NCBI GenBank assembly: GCA_028288675.1
Contig: JAQBNG010000127.1
Location: forward strand, 85,654 to 149,653
Direction of reading: 5' to 3'
DNA: 64,000 nucleotides
Source of the DNA: Flavisolibacter sp.
GTDB taxonomy: Bacteria > Bacteroidota > Bacteroidia > Chitinophagales > Chitinophagaceae
A program made the translations under genes and the position numbers. The first letter of the stretch is position 1. The number at the start of each line of letters is the position of its first letter. Of this stretch, positions 3,178 through 52,651 are shown one piece after another. Below the pieces are notes generated by a model, which was not told the origin of the DNA, made no database searches, and saw only the letters and a program-made list of their open reading frames with translations.

Positions 3178-3217
3178 ATTATCTCCCCAAAATTTCTTTT
3201 AGGAAAATTAAATTAGT

Positions 3218-4216
3218 ATGAAAACAGCCATATTCAGCGCACATAAATTCGAAAAAGAGTATTACGCTAAACAAGCCGCTGAAAAGCATGACCTGCTTTG
3301 GATCGAAGCCCCGCTTTCCGAAGACACTGTTATGCTGGCACATGGCTGTAAGGCTGTATGCATATTTGCCAATGATGATGGTTCTGAAAAAGTGATCAAA
3401 AAATTGGGAGAGGCCGGTATAGAATTTCTTGTATTGCGTTCAGCGGGATTTAACCATGTTGACCTTAAAGCCACTAAAGCAGCAGGTATAAAGGTTGCCC
3501 GTGTTCCGGAATATTCGCCATATGCTGTTGCCGAACATAGTGTAGCGCTGATGTTGGCCCTGAACCGGAAACTGATAAAAGCGAACAACAGGATAAGGGA
3601 CGGAAATTTTTCGTTAGATGGGCTTACCGGGTTTGATATGCATGGCAAAACCGTTGGCATTATCGGTTTGGGGAAAATAGGAAAGATCGTAGCTTCTATT
3701 GTTCATGGCTTTGGCTGCAACATCGTGGTATATGACCCTTCTCCGGACAGAGAACTGGAGCAAAAATTCGGTGTTATTTATACAGATATTGATTCGGTTT
3801 GTAAAGCGTCAGATATTATTACGCTTCACGCCCCGCTTACCAGCGAAACAAAATACCTGGTTAACAAAGACAGGATAGAGCTGATGAAAAAAGGAGTGAT
3901 GCTGATTAATACAGGCAGGGGAGGTTTAGTGAATACGAGGGATGTAATTGCAGGATTGAAGTCGTGCAAAATTGGGTATTTAGGCCTTGATGTTTATGAG
4001 GAAGAAAAAGGATTATTCTTTGAAGATCATTCGGGTGAAGTGTTGCAGGATGATGTTATTGCCCGGTTGATGACCTTTCAGAATGTTTTAATTACCAGTC
4101 ACCAGGCTTTTTTAACCAATACTGCCCTTGCGAATATTGCCGATATAACTATTAGTAACCTGAATGATTTTGAAGCCGGCAAAAAATGCGTAAATGAAAT
4201 AGATGAAAATACTTAG
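3218..4216 (+). CDS. ldhA: 2-hydroxyacid dehydrogenase (D-lactate dehydrogenase type)
   Basis: GKTVGIIGLGKIGKIVA NAD motif, NTGRGGLV, LDVYEEEKGLFFEDHS. Confidence 0.88.
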   Translation: MKTAIFSAHKFEKEYYAKQAAEKHDLLWIEAPLSEDTVMLAHGCKAVCIFANDDGSEKVIKKLGEAGIEFLVLRSAGFNHVDLKATKAAGIKVARVPEYSPYAVAEHSVALMLALNRKLIKANNRIRDGNFSLDGLTGFDMHGKTVGIIGLGKIGKIVASIVHGFGCNIVVYDPSPDRELEQKFGVIYTDIDSVCKASDIITLHAPLTSETKYLVNKDRIELMKKGVMLINTGRGGLVNTRDVIAGLKSCKIGYLGLDVYEEEKGLFFEDHSGEVLQDDVIARLMTFQNVLITSHQAFLTNTALANIADITISNLNDFEAGKKCVNEIDENT

Positions 4217-49631: not shown

Positions 49632-51230
49632 TTACAGTACTATATTTTGAACCAGCTCTAATTTATCAGGGTAATCTGTATTGAAGTGAAGGCCCCGGCT
49701 TTCCTTCCTGAAGGAAGCGCCTTTAACAATCAGGTAGCCAACTGTAATCATGTTTCTTAACTCCAGCAATTGTTGCGACACCGTAGTTGTGCGATACAAT
49801 TCTTCCGTTTCTTCAAATAACAAATCAATTCGTTTCAATGCTCTTTCCAAGCGAATAGTATTACGTACAATGCCAACATAATCGCTCATGACCTGTTGTA
49901 GTTCTTTAAGGCTTTGAGTAATTAAAATCATTTCTTTTGGCTCTGAGGTTCCCCCGGCATTCCAATCAGGAATTTGCGGGAGAGATATATTGTCATCAAC
50001 TTTATTCACTGCATCCACATAGCATCGGTGCGCAAATACCATTGCTTCTAAAAGCGAGTTACTTGCCAAGCGGTTGGCACCATGCAAGCCGGTGCTGGCA
50101 CATTCGCCACATACATATAAATTCTTTATTGAGCTTCTTCCCCACTCATCGGTTTTAATGCCGCCGCAACTGTAATGCGCAGCAGGCGAAACGGGTATCA
50201 TTTGTACGGCTACATCAATACCAACAGACAAACATTTTTCATAAATATTAGGAAAGTGGTCTTTGAATTTTTGCAAATCCATATGGCGACAATCGAGATA
50301 CACATGCTCGGTACCGCCAATCTTCATTTCATTATCTATTGCTCTTGCCACTATATCCCGTGGGGCTAAATCTCTTCTTTTATCATAACGCTCCATAAAA
50401 GCTTCCCCGGCAGCATTACGCAAAATTCCTCCATCACCCCTGACAGCTTCTGTAATTAAGAATGCCTGGCCTCTTTTGCCGGCCTCATACAAAGCCGTTG
50501 GGTGAAACTGGATAAACTCCATATTTTCAATACGGCCCTTTGCCCGGTAAACCATTGCTACGCCATCGCCCGTGGCAATATATGGATTGGTGGTAGTACG
50601 ATAAACCTGTCCATTACCACCGGTAGCAAGCAAAGTATTTTTCGAAACTATTTTTTCTATTCGGTTCGTTTGCGAATTGAGGACGTATACACCGTAGCAA
50701 CAAATATCAGGAGTAGACTTAGTTACCAGGTAGCCTAGGTGGTGTTGTGTGATAACGTCTATAACAAACAGGTGGTTGAGCAGGGTGATGTTGGGCGAAC
50801 GTTTGATAGTTTCCAGCAAGGCCCTTTCCATTTCTTTTCCTGTCACATCTTTATGATGAAGAATCCGAAACTCGGAGTGGCCGCCTTCTTTGCCTAGCTT
50901 GTAATCCCCTTCGGGGTCTTTATCAAACATAGCACCCCACTCAATAATTTCATCAATTCGTGCCGGGCCTTCCTTTACCACAATCTCAACTACTTCTCTG
51001 TTGCAAAGCCCGTCACCGGCGATCAACGTATCCTCAATATGTTTTTCAAAGGAATCATTTTCTAAATCATTCACTACAGCTACACCGCCTTGTGCGTACT
51101 TGGTATTGGTTTCATCGGGAGCGGCTTTGGTAATGATGATTATTTTTTTATCGGGGCAATGCTGGGCAACTTTTACAGCATAAGTAAGGCCGGCTATGCC
51201 GGATCCAATAACAAGAAAATCTGTTTGCAT
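49632..51230 (-). CDS. nadB: L-aspartate oxidase
   Basis: LVIGSGIAGLTYAVKVA FAD motif, TKYAQGGVAVV, HPTALYE, HYSCGGIKTDEWGRSSI. Confidence 0.94.
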   Translation of the reverse strand: MQTDFLVIGSGIAGLTYAVKVAQHCPDKKIIIITKAAPDETNTKYAQGGVAVVNDLENDSFEKHIEDTLIAGDGLCNREVVEIVVKEGPARIDEIIEWGAMFDKDPEGDYKLGKEGGHSEFRILHHKDVTGKEMERALLETIKRSPNITLLNHLFVIDVITQHHLGYLVTKSTPDICCYGVYVLNSQTNRIEKIVSKNTLLATGGNGQVYRTTTNPYIATGDGVAMVYRAKGRIENMEFIQFHPTALYEAGKRGQAFLITEAVRGDGGILRNAAGEAFMERYDKRRDLAPRDIVARAIDNEMKIGGTEHVYLDCRHMDLQKFKDHFPNIYEKCLSVGIDVAVQMIPVSPAAHYSCGGIKTDEWGRSSIKNLYVCGECASTGLHGANRLASNSLLEAMVFAHRCYVDAVNKVDDNISLPQIPDWNAGGTSEPKEMILITQSLKELQQVMSDYVGIVRNTIRLERALKRIDLLFEETEELYRTTTVSQQLLELRNMITVGYLIVKGASFRKESRGLHFNTDYPDKLELVQNIVL

Positions 51231-51350
51231 GAAAAATACAATAGTTAAGGTGTGAAGTTAGGAAGAGATGCGCTTTTAGTTATTTGAGACGTCAAACACG
51301 CAATAGCTCATATAATAATTTAATTACCTTACAGCCATCAAACTTAATTT

Positions 51351-52265
51351 ATGAGAGTTCTACTTGCTGCTATTGCAGCCCTTCTTCTTTTTAGTTGTAA
51401 AGAACAAAAAGCCCTGTTAACATTATTTATTTAAATAAAGATGCGGTGTTTACGAAAGACTCAGTGCGAAGCTTTTTAAGCACTGTGCCTGATGAACAGG
51501 CGGATAGTAGCAAGGCCGTCTTTTTACAAGGGATTGGCTTGATAAAAAATAATAATAACGCTACCGCAGCAATTGCTTAGTATTTATCCAACTGCCAATG
51601 CTTATTACGAATTAGGCAACGTTTACCTGCAAACCAAAAAGTGGAGTATAGCTTTGCAATCATTTGAAATGGCTGAAGCCATGAATTTTACACCTTCAGG
51701 TAATGTGCTATTTGGACAAGCCAGTTGTTATGCAGAAATGGACAGTACCGAGAAGATATACAGCTACCTTACGTATGCAGTTCACAACGGGTTTGTAGAT
51801 AGAGCAAAAATTCTGACCAACCCACATTTTGCCACGTACAAAAACGATGACATGTTACTAACTAGTTATAATGAAGCCATGAGCGGCAACGGCGACCCTG
51901 AGGAAATTTTATGGCAGGGATACACACAGGATTTTAAGCAAGCATCTTTCCCCTATAAGCTGGATAGTGCCCATAAGATTATCGATTACACAAAGGGGCA
52001 AACTTTTGATGCTTTTACCACTGACAATAAAACGATAGACGCTGTTATCAGAAATTTTGAAATTATTGGCGAAGCAGCGAACCGTTTACCGGACGCTTTT
52101 CGGGATACTCATACTTCTATAGATTGGGCTCGTATCAAGGGGTTTCGAAACAGGATTGTTCATGATTATTTTGGGATTGATTATTCTATTGTGTGGCAAA
52201 TAAAAGAAAGCTTTTTACCTCAACTGATTCAAGAGTTGAATAGGATTGATCTTCCAAACCAATAA
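51351..52265 (+). pseudogene. Decayed TPR-type lipoprotein whose last open frame is fused to a HepT/DUF86-like domain
   Basis: Lipoprotein start MRVLLAAIAALLLFSCKEQK in one frame, linker in a second, ORF 51573-52265 (TPR then HepT-like DAVIRNFEIIGEAANRLP..RNRIVHDYFGIDYSIVWQI). Confidence 0.7.
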
Positions 52266-52273
52266 TTTTGTAT

Positions 52274-52651
52274 ATGCTAACAAAAAAATTCATGAAGACA
52301 TTCCTTACACTATTCCTTTTCACCATTTGCACTATAAACGCATCAGCGCAAAACAAACAACCTGACACAGTTAACCTTGACACAGCTAAAAAAACTCAAC
52401 TCGTTGATGCCTCTTGTGGCCAATGTCAATTTGGTTTAAAAGGCAAGGGTTGCAACTTAGCGGTACGTATTAACGGCCAGGCTTATTTTGTAGATGGATC
52501 TGATATTGATTCGCACGGCGATGCCCACGCCGATGATGGCTTCTGCAAAAAAATAAGAAAGGCTAAAGTGCAGGGTGAGGTTGTTGACAACCGGTTTAAG
52601 GCAACTTATTTTCAGCTTCTGCCGGAGACGGCAAAAAAGAACCGCTCATAA
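52274..52651 (+). CDS. Small secreted Cys-containing protein (DUF6370-like)
   Basis: Signal peptide; VDASCGQCQFGLKGKGCNLAVRINGQAYFVDGSDIDSHGDAHADDGFCKKIRKAKV. Confidence 0.7.
   Translation: MLTKKFMKTFLTLFLFTICTINASAQNKQPDTVNLDTAKKTQLVDASCGQCQFGLKGKGCNLAVRINGQAYFVDGSDIDSHGDAHADDGFCKKIRKAKVQGEVVDNRFKATYFQLLPETAKKNRS

What the first reader, a model, noticed from the sequence alone, without database searches (positions are those of the whole stretch)
51573..52265. Chimeric ORF: TPR-lipoprotein remnant fused to a HepT/DUF86 toxin-like domain
Residues after ~PYKLDSAHKIIDYTKG read as HepT-like, with the catalytic-type R-X4-H-X-Y motif intact (RNRIVHDY). The front is TPR-like, and its signal peptide and linker are in other frames (51351-51570). 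No MntA nucleotidyltransferase is nearby. Either a deletion stranded a HepT domain without its antitoxin, or the fusion is a new tethered effector. Persistence of the full motif without MntA is the puzzling part.
Basis: partly seen in the sequence, partly recalled or inferred. Interest (0 to 1): 0.65.

Follow-up and report, generated by a model that had tools for sequence, protein, structure and literature searches.

The report
Deletion scar joining two broken genes
In this Flavisolibacter genome a decayed lipoprotein gene has been joined in frame to most of a HepT toxin gene by a local rearrangement that also removed the antitoxin and several neighbouring genes, so it is most likely a recent chimeric gene remnant rather than a new effector.

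Summary
ORF 51573-52265 (230 aa, TTG start) is a TPR lipoprotein remnant (aa 1 to about 129) fused to a HepT-like domain (PF01934, E 1.4e-28, aa 131-225) with R192-X4-H197-X-Y199 intact, and no cognate MntA exists in the genome. Relatives explain it. F. longurius (G015) has both parents whole and apart: the 365-aa lipoprotein beside nadB (the same locus) and an mntA-hepT pair elsewhere, 65% and 75% identical. The junction (about 51955-51971) lies in a short similar stretch (TGGAxAGTGCC). The window's genome lacks the lipoprotein's C-terminal 40%, the DUF2306 and GH130 orthologues that follow it in G015, mntA, and the first ~13 hepT codons. HepT's 3' end now abuts the DUF6370 gene. The lipoprotein half is also dead upstream: a net -1 frameshift and a 17-nt deletion separate its lipobox from the ORF. 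No spanning match was found in 399 family genomes or the 80 best genome-collection loci; 78 of those 80 HepTs have mntA directly upstream. The 'puzzling' intact motif fits a recent in-frame event: 38 of 39 conserved columns persist, while HepT's start and half of helix 1 are gone. Most likely an unpromoted chimeric pseudogene; residual expression is not excluded.

The parts
51351..51434 (+). Start codon, signal peptide and lipobox of the lipoprotein pseudogene (MRVLLAAIAALLLFSC, then out of frame to a stop)
   Evidence: Translation; aligned with the G015 lipoprotein; tblastn homology
51407..51580 (+). Second fragment of the lipoprotein in another frame (NKDAVFTKDSVRSFLSTVPDEQADSSK...NNNNATAAIA*), after a net -1 frameshift
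   Evidence: (58% identity over query residues 26-77)
51574..51590 (+). Approximate site of a 17-nt deletion relative to G015 that brings the frame back to that of the start codon
   Evidence: Nucleotide alignment; G031 has the same length as G015 here (protein alignment)
51582..51957 (+). In-frame TPR part of the lipoprotein (about codons 83-208 of 365)
   Evidence: 65% identity to G015 and 47% to G031; C-terminal part absent from the whole genome
51955..51971 (+). Junction zone between lipoprotein and hepT; short imperfect similarity TGGAxAGTGCC between both parents
   Evidence: Alignment with both G015 parents and with G011 hepT
51960..52262 (+). HepT-like domain lacking its first ~13 codons; keeps 38 of 39 conserved columns and R-X4-H-X-Y (52146-52169)
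49632..51230 (-). nadB, intact; left anchor of the locus, same place in G015, G009 and G007
   Evidence: 86-89% identity
52292..52651 (+). DUF6370 gene (PF19897); right anchor, same place in G015, G009 and G007, where it follows GH130

Best explanation
This is a chimeric pseudogene left by a local rearrangement. The ancestral order was nadB<- lipoprotein-> <-DUF2306 <-NlpE-like GH130-> DUF6370->, with an mntA-hepT pair at some stage lying between lipoprotein and DUF6370. An illegitimate recombination or deletion at a short similar stretch joined lipoprotein codon ~209 to hepT codon ~14 in frame. It removed the lipoprotein C-terminus, the intervening genes, mntA and the hepT start. The lipoprotein's 5' part carries two further frameshifting indels. 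With no start codon, promoter match or antitoxin of its own, the HepT domain is most likely silent or barely expressed, and its motif is intact only because the event is recent. SHOWN: both parents, both anchors, the missing genes, the junction, the frameshifts. INFERRED: that mntA-hepT had inserted there first, that a single deletion did it, that the event is recent, and lack of expression.
For: Both parents are whole and separate in G015: lipoprotein beside nadB and mntA-hepT on another contig. nadB and DUF6370 flank the same interval in G015, G007 and G009, with GH130 between them. The own genome lacks the DUF2306 gene (where the same query rings in four control genomes), the GH130 orthologue (only a 45% paralogue), the lipoprotein C-terminus and the cognate mntA. 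Junction similarity and frameshifts. 78 of the 80 closest genome-collection HepTs have mntA within 400 nt upstream; one of the two others has a stop early in its hepT reading frame. No match spans the junction in 399 family genomes or among the 80 loci kept.
Against: No relative was found with the intermediate state (mntA-hepT between lipoprotein and DUF6370), so the order of events is inferred. The HepT reading frame and nearly all its conserved residues are intact, which would also fit retained function. No transcript data. Synonymous sites are saturated against every relative, so age and post-fusion selection cannot be measured.
Confidence: 0.85

Rival explanations
1. The fusion is expressed and functional: a cytoplasmic TPR-HepT protein in which the lipoprotein segment replaces the lost half of HepT helix 1 and makes MntA control unnecessary.
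For: Open frame of 230 codons; R-X4-H-X-Y and 38 of 39 conserved columns kept. AlphaFold2 runs lipoprotein residues and HepT helix 1 together as one helix (residues 109-139) with pLDDT 90-98 over most of the HepT part. Internal ATG codons at 51852 and 51879 could start a HepT-bearing product.
Against: Upstream part frameshifted twice; TTG as the only full-length start; the Bacteroidetes -7 motif TANNTTTG occurs in 51201-52300 only at 51649 and 52263, with no properly spaced TTG upstream, against 20 on this strand of the window; architecture found in no other genome; conserved HepT N-terminus R..LL..D lost; an active unneutralised HepT would be expected to harm the cell.
Confidence: 0.07
2. Assembly artefact: a chimeric contig joining two loci.
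For: The genome is a 254-contig draft; no read data are available.
Against: The reciprocal halves (lipoprotein C-terminus; cognate mntA with the hepT start) occur nowhere in an assembly 99.8% complete and 0.16% contaminated. Both anchors nadB and DUF6370 are the native neighbours of this locus in the genus, so the right side is not foreign. The lipoprotein copy carries its own indels besides the junction.
Confidence: 0.04
3. Same outcome by another route: a hepT fragment was inserted into the lipoprotein-GH130 interval (for instance by template switching) rather than stranded by deletion of a resident mntA-hepT pair. This is a variant of the best explanation's history, not of its function.
For: No genome with a resident pair at this site was found; the hepT relatives looked at lie in varied contexts.
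Against: The intervening genes are missing as well, which a deletion explains in one step.
Confidence: 0.25

Closest known systems
HEPN/MNT (HepT/MntA, type VII) toxin-antitoxin system; Shewanella oneidensis SO_3166/SO_3165 (PDB 5YEP, 6M6U; PMC7641770)
   Same: HepT-like domain with R-X4-H-X-Y; a profile of this subfamily matches SO_3166 with the motif aligned, and the model of the intact G015 relative matches 5YEP, 6M6U and 7BXO best (TM 0.65-0.70 in the top rows, Foldseek E 0.009-0.03)
   Different: No MntA, no HepT start codon, first half of helix 1 replaced by lipoprotein sequence; product, if any, is fused to a TPR fragment
TPR lipoprotein next to nadB and DUF2306 in Chitinophagaceae (unnamed; Flavisolibacter longurius G015, G031, G139, G102)
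   Same: Same locus beside nadB as in G015; 65% identity to the G015 protein over aa 2-133
   Different: Two frameshifting indels and loss of the C-terminal ~155 residues
Decayed HEPN/MNT module on contig C211 of the same genome
   Same: One partner kept, the other broken
   Different: Mirror image: mntA intact, hepT cut to 46 codons

Membership tests
HEPN/MNT (type VII) toxin-antitoxin system | HepT-like HEPN domain | tested here: met
   PF01934 E 1.4e-28; 75% identity to G015 HepT
HEPN/MNT (type VII) toxin-antitoxin system | R-X4-H-X-Y motif with the AMP-accepting tyrosine (PMC7641770) | tested here: met
   R192-NRIV-H197-D-Y199, conserved columns
HEPN/MNT (type VII) toxin-antitoxin system | Adjacent MNT nucleotidyltransferase (GSX10DXD) | tested here: not met
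   None at the locus; no cognate copy in the genome, against 78 of 80 relatives with mntA upstream
HEPN/MNT (type VII) toxin-antitoxin system | Complete HepT with its own start and full helix 1 | tested here: not met
   First ~13 codons and the four conserved N-terminal columns (R, L, L, D) are missing; 8 of 18 residues of helix 1 lost relative to the G015 model
HEPN/MNT (type VII) toxin-antitoxin system | RNase activity and toxicity relieved by AMPylation | not testable with these tools
   Needs expression and assay
TPR lipoprotein of the nadB locus | Signal peptide and lipobox cysteine read through into the TPR part | tested here: not met
   Lipobox present at 51351-51398 but separated by two frameshifts and stops
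TPR lipoprotein of the nadB locus | Conserved C-terminal domain after codon ~210 | tested here: not met
   Query residues 214-365 have no match anywhere in the genome

The most novel reading that the evidence does not exclude
A HEPN RNase has been freed from its nucleotidyltransferase antitoxin by fusion to a TPR fragment that completes helix 1 and keeps the enzyme tame or redirects it, and the cell expresses it.
Probability: 0.05. Interest if true: 0.5.

Novelty: new member of a known kind. Interest (0 to 1): 0.15.

Why it matters
As a chimeric remnant it is ordinary: a clear example of how a toxin domain can outlive its antitoxin when the event that removes the antitoxin also removes the toxin's start. 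It is a caution against reading intact catalytic motifs in fused ORFs as evidence of function. If the fusion were expressed it would show antitoxin-free taming of a HEPN RNase, but nothing here points to that.

Tried and rejected
Tethered effector: rejected as the leading reading because lipobox and ORF are separated by two indels and no other genome has the architecture. Misassembly: examined through reciprocal halves and native anchors, disfavoured. A rescuing MntA elsewhere: three other mntA-hepT loci plus one mntA fragment at a contig end (C129) exist, all 42% identical or less to the expected partner; cross-neutralisation is not excluded but unlikely. dN/dS on the fused gene: synonymous sites saturated, so uninformative about post-fusion selection. 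A first conservation count used the wrong reading frame for the window and was redone. Foldseek with the fused model returned mainly TPR structures at E above 0.04. phmmer of the fused ORF against PDB gave nothing. A promoter scan for the Bacteroidetes consensus found no well-spaced match.

Full report
OBSERVATION. ORF 51573-52265 is real: 230 codons, TTG start, no stop. Pfam places a HepT-like domain at aa 131-225 (E 1.4e-28) and a weak TPR at aa 8-34. The catalytic-type motif is R192-NRIV-H197-D-Y199. The upstream signal peptide (ATG 51351, lipobox LFSC) and linker are cut off by stops or in another frame.

PARENTS. In the relatives searched the two halves are always separate genes. G015 (Flavisolibacter longurius by its hepT contig) has a 365-aa lipoprotein that is 65% identical to aa 2-133, and a separate HepT 75% identical to aa 130-225 with MntA directly upstream. 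G011 likewise has an mntA-hepT pair whose HepT is 75% identical. Among the 80 best HepT loci kept from the genome collection, 78 have mntA within 400 nt upstream. The two exceptions, L132 and L140, lie close to contig starts, and L140 shows a stop soon after the hepT start. In 399 genomes of the family no listed hit spans the junction: HepT hits start at about aa 119 or later, and the hits to the first half are to the lipoprotein or other TPR proteins (the hit list was cut).

LOCUS. In G015 the order is nadB<- lipoprotein-> <-DUF2306 <-NlpE-like GH130-> DUF6370-> (the names DUF2306, NlpE-like and GH130 are my reading of the sequences, not a Pfam result). G007 and G009 have nadB<- GH130-> DUF6370->. 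The window has nadB<- lipoprotein::hepT-> DUF6370->, with 26 nt between the HepT stop and the ATG of DUF6370. The window's genome has no DUF2306 gene of this kind (the query rings in G015, G031, G139 and G102), only a 45% GH130 paralogue, no lipoprotein C-terminus and no cognate mntA (best 42%, beside another hepT remnant). So everything between lipoprotein codon ~209 and hepT codon ~14 is gone.

JUNCTION AND DECAY. At nucleotide level the parents share a short imperfect stretch at the junction: window CTGGATAGTGCC, hepT TTGGAAAGTGCC, lipoprotein GTTGACAGTGGC (51955-51971). The lipoprotein half carries a net -1 frameshift between 51351 and 51473 and a 17-nt deletion near 51576-51589 relative to G015; G031 has the G015 length at the second site. 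The indels add up to a multiple of three, which is why the ORF is in phase with ATG 51351 although stops lie between them. The gene is therefore a pseudogene at its 5' end as well as truncated at its 3' end.

STATE OF THE HEPT PART. Of 39 columns conserved in at least 85% of 78 relatives, the window keeps 38 (one R to K); other single HepTs deviate at 1.6 columns on average. It loses the four conserved columns before the junction (R, L, L, D). Pairwise pN to relatives is about 0.2 with synonymous sites saturated, which shows past purifying selection but cannot date the fusion. AlphaFold2 models the retained domain confidently (pLDDT 90-98 for most of it) and runs helix 1 together with lipoprotein residues in one helix, 109-139. 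In the intact G015 model helix 1 spans residues 4-21, of which the fusion lacks 4-11. In the Legionella relative, helices 1 and 2 and the Y-loop build the dimer interface (PMC11586414), so losing part of helix 1 may matter. That is inference.

EXPRESSION. The Bacteroidetes -7 motif TANNTTTG (consensus from my own knowledge) occurs in 51201-52300 only at 51649 and 52263, without a well-placed TTG upstream, while the window has 20 such sites on this strand. The only full-length start is TTG. Internal ATG codons at 51852 and 51879 could start a short HepT-bearing product, so silence is likely but not shown.

CONCLUSION. The best-supported account is a recent in-frame deletion or recombination scar: a chimeric pseudogene in which most of a HepT domain was stranded without MntA and without its own start. 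It is descended from a HEPN/MNT toxin, but by the tests it is not a functional member, because the antitoxin and the toxin's start are missing. If it were expressed, the likely activity would be that of a HEPN RNase; that is untested.

Noticed in passing
L028 (G000 contig C34, 22000-29000), L191 (G013), L202 (G011); outside the window: An mntA-hepT pair sits inside the Complex I operon between nuoH and nuoI, with hepT ending at or overlapping the nuoI start, in this genome and two other Flavisolibacter. NuoH and NuoI are about 86% identical to their counterparts but HepT only about 35%, while the MntA N-terminus (MLTTxQI...KPVKKVYLFGSYAR) is recognisably shared. A fast-diverging toxin-antitoxin module embedded in a respiratory operon deserves its own look.
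   Followed up: partly
L028 6460-6852 (-): A separate HEPN-domain gene (PF05168) lies directly upstream of the nuoG-like gene in the same cluster.
   Followed up: no
L030 (G000 contig C211, 18036-18628): Mirror case: an intact mntA followed by a hepT remnant of 46 codons.
   Followed up: no
L025 4036-4657 (G015 contig C5): The closest intact mntA-hepT pair lies next to a transposase-like ORF (3211-3909, sequence reading only) in F. longurius, which would fit mobility of the module.
   Followed up: no
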